Source: Chloroflexota bacterium (lineage in GTDB: Bacteria > Chloroflexota > Anaerolineae > Anaerolineales > Anaerolineaceae). Taken from it: 64,000 nucleotides of DNA. Shown here piece after piece: positions 44,219 through 49,780 of this stretch (its first letter is position 1; each line of letters starts with the position of its first letter). The notes beneath the pieces were generated by a model. The model saw only the letters and a program-made list of their open reading frames with translations. It did not search any database and had not been told where the DNA came from. A program made the position numbers and the translations under genes. The stretch is from assembly GCA_023381565.1 (NCBI GenBank), contig JAMCRR010000197.1, positions 20,811 to 84,810 on the forward strand. Reading direction: 5' to 3'.

Positions 44219-45250
44219 CTAGCGGAATTGTTCGATGAAAGCCTCACTGATCATGGGATCGAATTGCGACCCTGAGCAGGCTTGAATTTCGGCGACGGCT
44301 CCGGCGTGGCTGAATATGTGGTTGTAGACGCGCGGCTCGGTCATCGAACCGTATGCATCGACGACCGAGAGGATTCGTGCCCCGCGCGGGATGCTTTTAC
44401 CTTTCAATCCGGCCGGGTAACCGCTGCCATCGAATTTTTCGTGGTGAGTCAGGATGATTTTCTTGACGTCGCCGAGTCTATTATCTTGCTCGATCATCTT
44501 TGCCCCGATTTGAGGATGGAGTTTCATGATCTTCCATTCTTCCTCTGTAAGCGGGCCGGGTTTTTGCAGGATTGTTTTGGGAATCCCCAGTTTTCCGATA
44601 TCGTGAAGCAATGTAGCCCAACCGATGGTTTGGATTTCAGCCTCACTGCAGCCTAAGCGGCGGGCGGTGAAAGTTGCCCACGGAACCAGACGCAAGCTGT
44701 GCTGGTAAGTGGATAGATCCCAGGTGGTCATCAGCTTTAGCAAAGCCTGGATGGTATCCAGTGTGGAACCTTCTCCCTGATGATCTCTGGCAAGGCAATA
44801 CATCAGGTCAGCCACTACGTTGCCCATAGAGTTCATCAGCATCAATTCGTTGGGAGAGAGTTTTCTGCGATGAGCGGCCCACAAGGCGCCAAAATTATAG
44901 CCGCGGATATTTAAGGGCGTGTGCGCCAGGTAGGGAGTGGAATTGAGGGTTTCCGACGCAAATGGGGTCGACACCGACAGGTTCACATCTTGCAGCGACA
45001 CCTGTCCGGTGGTCGACACCAAATTGGATATATCATGATCGGGTTTGAGGCTGCTTCCTGTCCAGCGATTCCAGCATGCCCGCCCTAACTCGACCATCAC
45101 CTCGGTTTGATCCGAGTTGTACTTGACCACCAAGAGCCCTTCGGCATCCAGCAGGCGCGTAAGCTCATCCATTAATGGCGGCACCGTCAGGATGTATCCT
45201 GGGAAGACGTAAAGCATATCTGGGATGGCTGTAATGTTGTCTGCTTCCAT
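44219..45250 (-). CDS. GAF-like/HD-GYP domain phosphodiesterase
   Basis: This is probably a cyclic di-GMP phosphodiesterase. The N-terminal 170 residues look like a GAF-type sensor (LVVKYNSDQTEVMVELG, RGYNFGALWAAHRRKLSPNE). The HD-GYP domain occupies about 180-340, with the HD pair in WATLLHDIGKLGIPK and the GYP motif in LTHHEKFDGSGYPAGLKG. The TATATATGG around the start leaves no ribosome-binding site, so it may be leaderless or coupled to the upstream gene. It is the last gene of the small-peptide/DUF5317 group. Confidence 0.88.
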   Translation of the reverse strand: MEADNITAIPDMLYVFPGYILTVPPLMDELTRLLDAEGLLVVKYNSDQTEVMVELGRACWNRWTGSSLKPDHDISNLVSTTGQVSLQDVNLSVSTPFASETLNSTPYLAHTPLNIRGYNFGALWAAHRRKLSPNELMLMNSMGNVVADLMYCLARDHQGEGSTLDTIQALLKLMTTWDLSTYQHSLRLVPWATFTARRLGCSEAEIQTIGWATLLHDIGKLGIPKTILQKPGPLTEEEWKIMKLHPQIGAKMIEQDNRLGDVKKIILTHHEKFDGSGYPAGLKGKSIPRGARILSVVDAYGSMTEPRVYNHIFSHAGAVAEIQACSGSQFDPMISEAFIEQFR

Positions 45251-45277: not shown

Positions 45278-45562
45278 CTATATGATGAATCTTGGTTTTT
45301 TATCCTGATACGGTCGATGGGTCTCCGGCGAATGGTGGGTTGCCACTTTGTTGGCAAAATCGGTCAGGGTAGTTGCATGAATTGAGAGGATCAAATCTTT
45401 TTCGTGGCCGTTCAGGGAAAAGCTCTCGCCATTGAAACCGGAATTCAAAGCTTTTTCAGGGTTGCTCAGCAGCAATTTTCTAAAACCCTGGTTGATAACG
45501 GCTGCGGTGAGTAGCCGGCTGATGTTAGCCGATGGTACGGGTTGACGATAAGGCGTCGCCAT
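45278..45562 (-). CDS. 94-residue protein with leader-peptide-like motif
   Basis: This small soluble protein is not recognised as an enzyme. Residues 28-60 (RKLLLSNPEKALNSGF, then NGESFSLNGHEKDLILSI) recall the short helical leader regions of Nif11/nitrile-hydratase-type RiPP precursors and the LigA-type fold: LLxxPxxAL, then a Gly turn and an E-rich helix. The C-terminal 25 residues are polar and basic (HHSPETHRPYQDKKPRFII). There is an excellent AGGAG six bases before the ATG at 45562. The gene begins inside the 3' end of the DUF5317 gene (38-base overlap), so they are co-translated. No maturation enzyme is adjacent. Confidence 0.75.
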   Translation of the reverse strand: MATPYRQPVPSANISRLLTAAVINQGFRKLLLSNPEKALNSGFNGESFSLNGHEKDLILSIHATTLTDFANKVATHHSPETHRPYQDKKPRFII

Positions 45563-46154
45563 AGGTATCTCCTGATAATTGGGTGATTTGCCTGGAAGGT
45601 CTCCCGAGAGACCAGCACGATACCAGTGCTCCAGCTGCGATGAGGATATCCCCCAGACTTAATGCAGATACGTAGGGGAAACCGTCAGGGAGTAAAAACC
45701 GATCCGACAACCACCAAAGGCGCGTGGCTGGTAGGGTCAGAACGATATCTTTCGTGTAACCAAGACGGCTGCCTATTGCCCAGGAGCCGGGTGCAGCGCC
45801 AGGAGCCAACCGTGTCACCAGATCCGGGCTGATTGGCATCCACCCGCCATTCAGGGCGATGACCAGAAAGTTTAGCGCCAGTCCTGCGCCCAGGATCCAA
45901 AAGCCGGGTTGCCTGCGGTTTACCCAGGCGAAGATGAGTAAAACCGCCTGCGAGCTGACCAACAACAGAGATGCGAACTGATCCGGTATCGCAACCCGTA
46001 TGGCTGGGATTCGGAAGACGATGGCTTGTGCGAGAAAAGCAACCGCTAACAACCACACCAGGCGAAGTTGGAACGGCCGCAAGCTGTGTTTTCCGATGAG
46101 CGCCCGTGCGAAGCCAGCCAGGAGGCCAAGAAGTATCGCCGTCAGTAAGATCAA
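45525..46154 (-). CDS. DUF5317 membrane protein
   Basis: This 209-residue membrane protein has five or six hydrophobic helices and matches what I know of DUF5317: ALIGKHSLRPFQLRLVWL, LALNFLVIALNGGWMPISP, LWWLSDRFLLP and VSALSLGDILIAAGA. The family has no established function and is frequent in Chloroflexota and actinobacteria. It starts three bases after the small membrane peptide gene's stop and overlaps the next gene, so it is the core of a translationally coupled set. Confidence 0.85.
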   Translation of the reverse strand: MILLTAILLGLLAGFARALIGKHSLRPFQLRLVWLLAVAFLAQAIVFRIPAIRVAIPDQFASLLLVSSQAVLLIFAWVNRRQPGFWILGAGLALNFLVIALNGGWMPISPDLVTRLAPGAAPGSWAIGSRLGYTKDIVLTLPATRLWWLSDRFLLPDGFPYVSALSLGDILIAAGALVSCWSLGRPSRQITQLSGDTYGDALSSTRTIG

Positions 46155-46157
46155 GGG

Positions 46158-46301
46158 TTATCCACCAAATCCGCCGTCTGAAGCCGGGGCGCCGGCGGTA
46201 AGAAGGAACATAGCCAGGCTCAGAATGATCACAACCATCTGAATGGTGCGGCGGTCGACACGGCTGATTGCCAGAGTGATATCGCGAGCGATGGATTTCA
46301 T
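46158..46301 (-). CDS. 47-residue single-helix membrane peptide
   Basis: This small protein has a basic amphipathic N-terminus (MKSIARDITLAISRVDRR), one hydrophobic helix (about residues 22-39) and a short Gly-rich tail ending GGFGG. GGGAGGGAATC precedes the ATG at 46301, a strong ribosome-binding site; the longer in-frame start at 46352 lacks one. It stands directly below the tandem-repeat promoter region and three bases before DUF5317. It could be a signalling peptide, a toxin-like peptide or a subunit partner of DUF5317. No family was recognised. Confidence 0.7.
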   Translation of the reverse strand: MKSIARDITLAISRVDRRTIQMVVIILSLAMFLLTAGAPASDGGFGG

Positions 46302-46355
46302 GATTCCCTCCCAGGAAATGATTGAAAGTGTAATACGTATATTTTCCGTCAACCG

Positions 46356-46386
46356 AGGCTCAGAAACAGGCTCAGAAACAGGCTCA
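46356..46386 (-). repeat. 12-bp tandem repeat, 2.6 copies
   Basis: AGGCTCAGAAAC is repeated at 46356-46367 and 46368-46379, with a partial third copy AGGCTCA to 46386. Read on the minus strand, each unit contains TGAGCCT. It lies 55-85 bases upstream of the small-peptide start. Confidence 0.9.
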
Positions 46387-46390
46387 ATTG

Positions 46391-46434
46391 ATTAAAATAA
46401 GTTAAGAATATCATTAAAATAAGATTAGAATATC
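46391..46434 (-). promoter_or_regulatory. 22-bp tandem direct repeat (candidate activator site)
   Basis: Two 22-bp units (46391-46412 and 46413-46434), starting ATTAAAATAAG and ending AGAATATC, differ at only two positions. A 22-bp period equals two helical turns, the spacing typical of sites bound by SARP/BTAD-type activators. The unit next to the small-peptide operon lies directly behind the 12-bp repeats. The adjacent regulator gene carries such a domain. Confidence 0.6.
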
Positions 46435-46546: not shown

Positions 46547-49500
46547 TTAGCGGGTAAGGGTTTCGAACAAGGCGTTGGTTTCTGTAGAGGGTAGCAACCT
46601 GATCTCGTCCATCAGGCTATGCTGGCAGCGTTCGAACTGCCGCACAACCGCTACCTTATTTCCCATGGCAGCGTAGATGCGCATGGCAAGGCGGTGCGCT
46701 TCTTCAAGGCAGGCATCCTTAGCTAGCAGGTCCTGGCAGAAATCGAGCGCCTGTTTATGTTCTCCCTGGGAAAGATAAAGTTCGGCCAGGTGCAGCGCAG
46801 AGTGGAGATAAGCCTGGTAGAGCCGCTCTCGTTCGGGAAGCACCCAGACGCCAAATGCTTCTGGCAGGTATTCGCCTTTATACAGGTGCAGGCCAGATTT
46901 AAGGAGGTTGATTTCCTTGTCGATCTCCCCCGCAACCTGCGACTGGGCCAGCTTTGTCGTGAAAGTCTCGACGTCGTATTCGTAATCGAGGGAATGGTTG
47001 AAAAGGTATCGGTCGTGATCCAGGGTAATCACGTCCTGTTCGAGGGCGTGTCTGAGCCGGTAGATGGCGTTCTTGAATTGCAGCTTGCCCTGTGCTAAGG
47101 TGCTGTCAGCCCATAGAAAGCCTCCGATCGCCTCTTTCGTCAAACCTTCGGGATGCGCCAGGAGCAGGAAAAACAGATCTCGCGCGGCCTGTGATTGCCA
47201 GCCTACATCGGAAACTGAGCGACCATCGATCGTCACCTGGATTTTCCCCAGGGCGTGGATTCCCAGCCTGGGTGGAGCAAAAGGCACCAGAGAAGCCTGC
47301 CGCCGTAAACGCCTGCGCAGGGTGGGGATCTTTTTCTCGAATTCTCCGACCTGCTCTAATAGCCCCTCAATAGGTGCTTTCAATCCCGCGAGGGAGCGCG
47401 CCTCATCCAGGATAGGCATAACCTCGCGTGCACCCACGACCAGAAAATGCCGGCTCTCCATTTGGGAGGATAAATGAAGGGCTTGTTTGAGATGGCTCGT
47501 GGCGCGGTCCATCTCACCTGATTGGAGGAGGGCGCATCCCAGGTAAAGATGGGCTTGCGAATCTTCGATGCGCTGCCCCCCGAGTTGAAAACAATCGCAT
47601 GCATCTTGCAGCTCGTGCACAGCCTTGGTGAAATCACCTGCCAGGAGGGAGAGCCTGCCGCTCTCCAACGAATAGGTCCCTTTTTCGACGACAGACTGGC
47701 TCTGATTGAGCAGCGATGCAGCCTGCACAGCGAGTTCTCTGGCTTGCTCCCAACCTTTTCGCAGCCGGAACAGCGAAACCTGAGCGACTGCCAGGTAGAA
47801 GAGTAAGAATCGTTCGCCGATTTGCTGGGAAATTTCAATCGACTGGTGGTAAGCTTTCTCTGCCGCATCCAGGGCATCCAGGTCGCGGTAAAGATCCCCG
47901 ATGCTCGCCAGGCATAAGGCTTCCATGCGGATAAAACCGCTCTGTTTGGCTGCGGTCAGTGCTCGTTCCAACAAACCCCCGGCAAGTTCGTATTCTCCCT
48001 GGACCTGGTAAAGCACCCCCAGGTTGTTCATCACGGTTGCCAGACGAGCGAGATCACCGATTTTTTCCAGAGAACGGATGGCGTGTTCGTAGGCGAAGCG
48101 CGACTTTTTATAAAGCCCCGAGTTTTGAAAGATGGTTCCTAAATCAATTTGAACGAGGGCTAGATTTTCGGAGTTGCCAAGGGTATCAAAGATGCCTGCT
48201 GCTTCCGAAAGACAATCTACCGCTTCGCTCCAGTGGCCAAGCCGAAATAAACTCAGCCCCTTGGCCCGCAGGGCTAAGGCTTTAACCATGCTCAGAGATT
48301 CGGATTCACCAACCAGGGTAATTGCTTCCTCGGCATCGGCCAGAGCAGCCTGGTAATCTCCCAGGTAGTAGAGGGTCAGCGCCCTGCGGTGGAGGGTATT
48401 TGCCAGTTGGGTGGTCTTGCCGTCTTTGCGCAAAGCTTTTTCGCTGGCGTTGAACAGGACCAGGCTGCGCTCGACCTCGCCGGAGGTCGCGGCGACCGTT
48501 CCGCGCAACGAAAGAATCGAGGGGTTGGATAGCAATTCCGCAGCTGGAAGCCCATCAATCCAGGATGCCAGGGTAGACAACCTGCCAATTTTTATCAAAA
48601 CCGGGCCGGTCTGTTCTATGAGCTCAATGACATCGGCGGTATCTCCCAGCCGTCGGAACAATGCATGGGCTTTCTCCCATTCTCCGCGCAAGGCATATAC
48701 TTTAGCCAGTCTCTGGTTGATCCGCGCTTCCTCGCCCGGGTTTTCATTAGCCAGCCTCATCTGCAGGAAATCGCGGAACAGATGGTGGTAGCGCAGCCAA
48801 AGACCTTTCTCGCCTACCGGCAGGATGAAGAGGTTGTTGTGGAGCACGGTTTCCATCAGATCCTGCCAGCTCTCACCTCCAGGATAGCCTGGCTGGCCAA
48901 AGATGGTCTCGCATAGCTCGGCATCGAACTCTTCCAGGATGGAAGTGCGCAACAGAAAATCGCGCACCGGCGGGGTTTGCCGGTCGAGCACCTGTTGGGC
49001 CAGGTAATCGTACAGGCCTATTTTCGAAACCCTGGCCGACTGCAGGCGGGTAGAAATTTCCTGCCATTTCGAGCTGTTCGACAGCAGCAGCCCGGTAATC
49101 CAGCCTTCCGTTTCCTGGGCTAATACTTCAGCTTCTTCGACGGTCAGGGTAACGTGATAGTTTTGCTGGATGAGATTGCGGATTTCCTCTGCCTGGAAGG
49201 TAAGCTGGTCGAATCCCAGGCCGCCGACCTGAGAGCGAGCCACCATCAGCGGCAGGTCGGGCAAACTTAAAAGGGTGCGAGAGGCGACGACCAGGTGGCA
49301 GTTCTCGTCCATAGCCTGCAAGAATAGCCCCATAAAGCGGTTGATCTCTTCTTGGTCGTCGACAAAATGATAATCATCCAGGACAATCAGAAAATGCTCC
49401 TGGATGTTTTCGTAGGCTTCGTTGGCAATGACTGTAACGAGCTGGTTGAGATCTGGATTGGCCGCCGGAAGGTTCTGGAGGGTGAGCGCCGACTGCTTTC

Positions 49501-49780
49501 CGAAAGCTGGGAAGCGCTGGCTGATGGAGGCAAGGAGGTGGGCAGCAAAACGCTTGAAGTCTTTATCAAGGGGGTCGAGAGCGTACCAGCTAACCGGAAT
49601 TTCAGTCTGATGCGCAAGATCAATGAGCAGAGAAGTTTTGCCGTATCCGGCTGGAGCGGCGATGATGATCAGCTTATTATCCAACAGCTCCGTCATAGCG
49701 TCTAACAGACGCTGCCGGGATAACAGATCGGCGCGACGGCGCGGCAATACTATTTTGGTGCGTGTAACCGGCTGATTCAT
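46547..49780 (-). CDS. MalT-like STAND ATPase regulator with TPRs and a BTAD/winged-helix domain
   Basis: This is a large transcriptional regulator. The N-terminal NTPase has Walker A IIIAAPAGYGKTSLLIDLA (about residues 38-56), Walker B-like HFLIVLDDYHFVDDQEEI, and MalT-type sequence VARSQVGGLGFDQLTF. Repeats from about 350-800 are TPRs (YYLGDYQAALADAEEAI, MNNLGVLYQVQGEYELAG). The C-terminal 240 residues hold a winged-helix (RDLFFLLLAHPEGLTKEAIG) plus BTAD domain as in SARP regulators. The usual MalT C-terminal LuxR HTH is absent; DNA binding would come from the SARP-type half. The ligand is unknown. The tandem repeats downstream are likely targets. Confidence 0.9.
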   Translation of the reverse strand: MNQPVTRTKIVLPRRRADLLSRQRLLDAMTELLDNKLIIIAAPAGYGKTSLLIDLAHQTEIPVSWYALDPLDKDFKRFAAHLLASISQRFPAFGKQSALTLQNLPAANPDLNQLVTVIANEAYENIQEHFLIVLDDYHFVDDQEEINRFMGLFLQAMDENCHLVVASRTLLSLPDLPLMVARSQVGGLGFDQLTFQAEEIRNLIQQNYHVTLTVEEAEVLAQETEGWITGLLLSNSSKWQEISTRLQSARVSKIGLYDYLAQQVLDRQTPPVRDFLLRTSILEEFDAELCETIFGQPGYPGGESWQDLMETVLHNNLFILPVGEKGLWLRYHHLFRDFLQMRLANENPGEEARINQRLAKVYALRGEWEKAHALFRRLGDTADVIELIEQTGPVLIKIGRLSTLASWIDGLPAAELLSNPSILSLRGTVAATSGEVERSLVLFNASEKALRKDGKTTQLANTLHRRALTLYYLGDYQAALADAEEAITLVGESESLSMVKALALRAKGLSLFRLGHWSEAVDCLSEAAGIFDTLGNSENLALVQIDLGTIFQNSGLYKKSRFAYEHAIRSLEKIGDLARLATVMNNLGVLYQVQGEYELAGGLLERALTAAKQSGFIRMEALCLASIGDLYRDLDALDAAEKAYHQSIEISQQIGERFLLFYLAVAQVSLFRLRKGWEQARELAVQAASLLNQSQSVVEKGTYSLESGRLSLLAGDFTKAVHELQDACDCFQLGGQRIEDSQAHLYLGCALLQSGEMDRATSHLKQALHLSSQMESRHFLVVGAREVMPILDEARSLAGLKAPIEGLLEQVGEFEKKIPTLRRRLRRQASLVPFAPPRLGIHALGKIQVTIDGRSVSDVGWQSQAARDLFFLLLAHPEGLTKEAIGGFLWADSTLAQGKLQFKNAIYRLRHALEQDVITLDHDRYLFNHSLDYEYDVETFTTKLAQSQVAGEIDKEINLLKSGLHLYKGEYLPEAFGVWVLPERERLYQAYLHSALHLAELYLSQGEHKQALDFCQDLLAKDACLEEAHRLAMRIYAAMGNKVAVVRQFERCQHSLMDEIRLLPSTETNALFETLTR

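What the first reader, a model, noticed from the sequence alone, without database searches (positions are those of the whole stretch)
46356..46434. Two families of tandem repeats in the small-peptide promoter
A 22-bp repeat (two copies, two mismatches) is followed at once by a 12-bp repeat (2.6 copies), all within 80 bases and ending 55 bases before the operon. SARP-type activators bind direct repeats spaced by 11 or 22 bp just ahead of a weak promoter. A TTGACG lies right after the repeats, with a poorly spaced TACACT, as expected of an activator-dependent promoter. The adjacent gene encodes a BTAD protein.
Basis: partly seen in the sequence, partly recalled or inferred. Interest (0 to 1): 0.65.

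Follow-up and report, generated by a model that had tools for sequence, protein, structure and literature searches.

The report
Order-wide switch for small-peptide genes
The repeats are a real control site: the same 12-base repeats sit at one fixed distance from the promoter in front of small-peptide genes across a whole order of Chloroflexota bacteria, in genomes that carry an activator related to the antibiotic regulators of Streptomyces, which very probably binds them.

Summary
Both repeat families are real and exactly placed, but they are two different things. The 12-bp repeat (46356-46387, three copies read on the - strand) is the window's version of a conserved operator: octamers TGAAGCCT and variants, spaced 12 bp, ending 8-9 nt before a -10 hexamer. 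It is found in 66 genomes of 21 genera of the window's family and again in other families of the order (f12: -10 at 9 nt in nearly every locus), in front of the operon small peptide - DUF5317 - Os1348-like - HD-GYP. It persists where the regulator gene lies elsewhere (13 of 13 loci), and strict copies occur almost nowhere else in 147 genomes. The regulator's C-terminal 240 residues have the AfsR/EmbR (SARP) fold. Best explanation: this STAND-TPR-SARP protein binds the 12-bp repeats in place of a -35 element and activates the peptide operon. The 22-bp repeat (46391-46434) is really four 11-bp units, shared clearly only with one other genus and sometimes inverted: probably a second regulator's site. 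No binding was measured. New variant of a known kind.

The parts
46356..46363 (-). operator repeat 3 (nearest the promoter), CTGAGCCT
   Evidence: conserved position in relatives
46368..46375 (-). operator repeat 2, CTGAGCCT
46380..46387 (-). operator repeat 1, TTGAGCCT; the same octamer is an upstream repeat in other genera (e.g. L076, L088, L159, L239)
46341..46346 (-). predicted -10 hexamer GAAAAT, 9 nt after repeat 3; the same hexamer stands 9 nt after the box in L223
   Evidence: by inspection also in L236
46391..46434 (+). distal element: four 11-bp units (consensus ATTARAATAWS), a separate, lineage-specific putative site
46547..49780 (-). regulator: MalT-like STAND ATPase, TPR repeats, C-terminal SARP domain (winged helix + BTAD)
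46158..46301 (-). 47-aa peptide: one hydrophobic helix and C-terminus GAPASDGGFGG
45525..46154 (-). DUF5317 membrane protein
45278..45562 (-). 94-aa Os1348/NHLP-like small protein (below the curated cut-off)
44219..45250 (-). HD-GYP-type protein

Best explanation
The 12-bp repeats are the operator of the regulator encoded just upstream. Two or three SARP domains of this STAND-TPR protein bind head to tail on octamers spaced 12 bp (a little over one helical turn), occupying the place of a -35 element. They thereby bring RNA polymerase to a -10 that starts 8-9 nt downstream, as AfsR does at afsS. This switches on the operon of the small peptide, DUF5317, Os1348-like and HD-GYP genes. Shown here: the repeats, their period, their fixed distance to the -10, their conservation, their near-restriction to this operon, co-occurrence of regulator and operon, and the (predicted) SARP fold. 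Inferred: that this regulator is the protein that binds, that it activates rather than represses, and that its TPR part senses a signal.
For: Period: with no motif assumed, 12 bp is the best-matching lag in 38 of about 70 promoter regions. Geometry: locating boxes from the octamers alone with the test genus left out, the best -10 lies 8 or 9 nt downstream in 54 of 67 regions and in most genera; in a shuffle null each spacing gets about 5 of 66. Independent test: the model trained on the window's family finds the box with the -10 at 9 nt in nearly every locus of family f12. Specificity: across 147 genomes strict box pairs fall in this promoter with few exceptions, and 17 of the 19 genomes with strict promoter boxes have the full regulator, the other two having it cut or lost at contig ends; in the window's genome the perfect pair occurs only here, and three of the four one-mismatch hits lie in long open frames. 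Unlinked regulators: the box stays at the operon in 13 of 13 loci. Co-occurrence of regulator and DUF5317: 60 of 63, Fisher p = 1e-26 without correction for kinship. Fold: AfsR Z 21.9 over 236 residues, EmbR 19.7, next 11.6; AfsR by sequence E = 2e-9. AfsR precedent: direct repeats, the 3' one 8 bp from the -10 (PMC10936776).
Against: No binding or expression data. Box classes (GNAGC, GCATC, GAGAC) follow the phylogeny and do not covary preferentially with DNA-binding residues; the recognition helix is nearly invariant. The window's own box is among the most divergent (CTGAGCCT; 8.6 bits with the family model, 1.3 with its genus left out), and its -10 GAAAAT matches TATAAT at 4 of 6. The period is 12, not the classical 11. 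Genomes hold other BTAD proteins, so another one could bind.
Confidence: 0.82

Rival explanations
1. The regulator binds the distal 22-bp (4 x 11-bp) array, whose 11-bp period is the classical SARP one, and the 12-bp repeats belong to another factor.
For: 11-bp spacing and heptamer-like units match published SARP operators (PMC5930380); the array is unique to this promoter in its genome apart from two weak hits.
Against: The array is absent from most relatives that keep regulator and operon; clear matches are only in the window and genus g3, in either orientation, although the regulator's recognition helix is nearly invariant. It lies far from the -10.
Confidence: 0.06
2. The 12-bp repeats are bound by a different regulator that merely co-occurs, such as another BTAD or OmpR-type protein.
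For: The window's genome has many paralogues; no residue covariation ties the box to this protein.
Against: Orthologous regulator and box share the same genomes across the family and in other families of the order; the geometry is that of a SARP.
Confidence: 0.07
3. The regulator is a repressor sitting on the repeats and blocking polymerase.
For: A site just upstream of and adjoining the -10 could also block initiation (inference).
Against: No TTGACA-like -35 is conserved; the repeats take its place, which fits an activator-dependent promoter. Known SARPs activate (PMC10936776).
Confidence: 0.04
4. The repeats are neutral tandem duplications or AT-rich debris.
For: Tandem repeats arise easily; the window's 12-bp copies are nearly perfect.
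Against: Same period, position and core in 66 genomes of 21 genera and in other families.
Confidence: 0.01

Closest known systems
AfsR - afsS of Streptomyces coelicolor (large SARP; PMC10936776)
   Same: STAND NTPase + TPR + SARP domains; SARP-domain fold (Z 21.9); direct repeats in place of the -35, 3' repeat about 8 bp from a poor -10; target is the gene of a small protein (63 aa, from memory)
   Different: SARP domain is C-terminal here, N-terminal in AfsR; period 12 instead of 11; unrelated repeat sequence; different operon; Chloroflexota
PimR (SARP-LAL; PMC5930380)
   Same: SARP domain joined to a large ATPase module; three tandem repeats; a single main target
   Different: Period 11 (main) or 10 (secondary); operator does not overlap the -35; SARP domain N-terminal; antifungal cluster
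MalT (LAL family)
   Same: N-terminal 520 residues match the MalT model (245 bits, cut-off 537)
   Different: No LuxR helix-turn-helix; replaced by a SARP domain
RRNPP peptide-pheromone receptors (from memory)
   Same: TPR-containing regulator next to a short hydrophobic peptide gene
   Different: Different DNA-binding domain, STAND ATPase present, no evidence of peptide binding

Membership tests
SARP-domain transcription factors | OmpR-type winged helix followed by BTAD | tested here: met
   Pfam BTAD E 5e-18; model pLDDT 92.8; AfsR Z 21.9, EmbR 19.7
SARP-domain transcription factors | target promoters with direct repeats, the 3' repeat about 8 bp from the -10 | tested here: met
   8-9 nt in 54 of 67 regions of the family; 9 nt in nearly all loci of f12
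Classical SARP operator | repeats spaced 11 or 22 bp | tested here: not met
   period is 12 bp in the window and relatives; hence filed as a variant, not a classical SARP operator
SARP-domain transcription factors | binds the repeats and activates transcription | not testable with these tools
   needs binding and transcription assays
Large SARPs of the AfsR type | N-terminal SARP domain followed by NOD and TPR | tested here: not met
   order is STAND (about 1-420), TPR (about 430-820), SARP (about 830-1077)
MalT / LAL regulators | C-terminal LuxR-type helix-turn-helix | tested here: not met
   C-terminus is winged helix + BTAD; MalT model score below its cut-off
RRNPP quorum sensing | TPR domain binds the mature peptide of the adjacent gene | not testable with these tools
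   only neighbourhood and peptide repeats were seen
Os1348 / NHLP small proteins | score above the curated cut-off | tested here: inconclusive
   28.3 bits against a cut-off of 40

The most novel reading that the evidence does not exclude
A closed peptide-signalling loop kept across the order: the STAND-TPR-SARP protein is the receptor of the small secreted peptide whose operon it switches on through the 12-bp operator, with DUF5317 handling the membrane-anchored precursor. Hints: in genera g8, g9 and g33 the peptide is a chain of four to six repeated cores (KPGASGGIGGGY, PQASGDISRR), and DUF5317 is missing in the genera whose peptide lost its hydrophobic helix (g8, g9, g12, g33; also in g25, which keeps a helix).
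Probability: 0.2. Interest if true: 0.85.

Novelty: new variant of a known kind. Interest (0 to 1): 0.6.

Why it matters
It gives a specific, testable operator for a SARP-domain regulator in Chloroflexota, where the paper searches of the held library found none. It extends the SARP promoter rule (repeats in place of the -35, about 8 bp from the -10) to a 12-bp period and a C-terminal SARP domain. It links an order-wide regulator to a family of short, sometimes multi-core peptides of unknown function, so the question of what these peptides do can be approached through one promoter.

Tried and rejected
Covariation between box class and DNA-binding residues: negative; winged-helix columns rank lower than the rest of the protein, and classes follow phylogeny. 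Own-genome regulon: no further convincing site. Box upstream of the regulator itself: one score of 13.0 bits (L135), all others below 9, so no general autoregulation. Distal array as a general site: two weak two-mismatch hits elsewhere in the genome. Upstream GTTAAC-N5-GTTAAC in genus g4: also nearly promoter-specific, not followed to a factor. TTGACG/TACACT promoter: TTGACG falls in the variable spacer. Intrinsic terminator before the operator in the window: none found. Rfam on the window and on the g29/g36 leaders: nothing. DUF5317 fold: good model (pLDDT 91.4), but Foldseek gave nothing below E 0.001 and the best second-look Z was 5.6, so uninformative. Winged-helix profile alone against solved structures: only short hits to designed proteins. 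Paper searches for DUF5317 and for SARP or BTAD in Chloroflexi found nothing.

Full report
The window lies in a 4.3-Mb genome of 204 contigs; the closest named relatives are labelled Anaerolineaceae or other Chloroflexota. On the - strand the order is: regulator (46547-49780), 245-nt gap, 47-aa peptide (46158-46301), DUF5317 membrane protein (45525-46154), 94-aa Os1348-like protein (45278-45562) and an HD-GYP-type protein (44219-45250).

The 12-bp repeat at 46356-46386 and the 22-bp repeat at 46391-46434 are the two best tandem arrays of the window, and no shuffle of the gap reaches either score.

Relatives decide what they are. The regulator was found in 70 and DUF5317 in 63 of 147 genomes of the family, together in 60. 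I fetched the loci and read the promoter regions. Nearly all have octamers of the type TGAAGCCT, repeated at 12 bp, directly ahead of a -10. Without any motif, 12 is the commonest best lag (38 of about 70). With a model of the two octamers only, and the test genus left out, the best -10 lies 8 or 9 nt downstream in 54 of 67 regions; in a shuffle null each spacing gets about 5 of 66. The per-genus vote gives 8 or 9 in all genera but three, the window's own genus being one of the three because its divergent box is placed ambiguously by that model. Forms: GNAGCCT in most genera, GCATCCT in part of g39, alternating AATGCCT/GAGACC in g23, g28 and most of g40. In total 66 genomes of 21 genera have the box.

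An independent test came from other families of the order. In family f12 the model, trained only on the window's family, finds the box in every intact locus examined, and the -10 stands at 9 nt in nearly all of them. Family f8 shows AAGAGACC-type repeats with a CATAAT or GATAAT at 9 nt in several loci; two of these were found by the model, the others only by reading. L223 (f14) has GAAAAT at 9 nt, as in the window; L236 (f6) shows the same by inspection. In f14 two loci (L219, L225) gave no convincing box.

The box belongs to this operon. Strict GCATCCT pairs gave 12 hits in 147 genomes, all but one in this promoter; strict GAAGCC-type pairs hit this promoter plus few others. The others include two sites in G005 ahead of signal-peptide-like starts followed by RHS-like fragments, and one in G101 ahead of a 2360-aa RHS-repeat protein, so the regulon is sometimes wider. 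In the window's genome the perfect pair is found only here. Where the regulator gene is not next to the operon (g3, g29, g36) the box remains at the operon in 13 of 13 loci. This association makes the regulator the likely binder but does not prove it; box classes do not covary with its DNA-binding residues, which hardly vary.

The regulator's C-terminal 255 residues are predicted to fold as a SARP domain (pLDDT 92.8), with AfsR (Z 21.9) and EmbR (19.7) far above the next match (11.6). In AfsR the repeats take the place of the -35 and the domain dimer reaches sigma region 4 and the core enzyme (PMC10936776). The same arrangement is inferred here, with the -10 at 46346-46341 (GAAAAT).

The window's copy is itself unusual: the three octamers are YTGAGCCT, which score 8.6 bits with the family model and 1.3 with its genus left out, and the regulator has Q where 67 of 70 relatives have R at the start of the recognition helix. 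One case is no test, but the pair may have changed together. TTGAGCCT as an upstream octamer occurs in several other genera.

The distal array is a separate matter: four 11-bp units, with nearly identical stretches upstream of the same operon in genus g3, in either orientation, and no clear match in most other genera. A second, lineage-specific regulator is the simplest reading; its identity is unknown.

The peptides deserve notice. Most have a hydrophobic helix and end in a glycine-rich tail after GAP. In g8, g9 and g33 the same promoter precedes peptides made of four to six repeated cores without the helix, and in g12 a short one; these genera lack DUF5317 at the threshold used. In g29 and g36 no such peptide frame was recognised and a conserved hairpin leader follows the -10. 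These are leads, not results.

Noticed in passing
L080, L085, L087, L088 (downstream of regulator stop): Same promoter box precedes multi-core peptides (KPGASGGIGGGY x4-5, KPGASGGFGGY-type x6, PQASGDISRR x4); DUF5317 is absent in these genera.
   Followed up: partly
L145-L148, L150-L153, between the -10 and DUF5317: Conserved leader of about 100 nt: hairpin TGAGGT...ACCTCA with loop GCCCTCCGAAC (CCTCC, anti-Shine-Dalgarno-like), then a GC-rich hairpin; no Rfam match. The RNAalifold consensus was weak, with one misplaced row (L149).
   Followed up: partly
L177 and L190 (G005), L209:1344-8526 (G101): Box pairs also stand ahead of RHS-type secreted proteins or their remnants.
   Followed up: partly
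L160 (G000:C95:2-2755): A 56% identical paralogue of the regulator in the same genome, cut by the contig end, so its target is unknown.
   Followed up: no
L091, L095, L096, L101 (genus g4) upstream of the box: GTTAAC-N5-GTTAAC, almost promoter-specific in these genomes; a possible second site comparable to the window's distal array.
   Followed up: partly
L098, L111, L118, L126, L130: Two to five copies of the small-peptide gene in a row.
   Followed up: no
L204 / L211 (G134:C3:363-382): A second GCATCCT box with TATAAT 9 nt downstream near a contig end; target unclear.
   Followed up: partly
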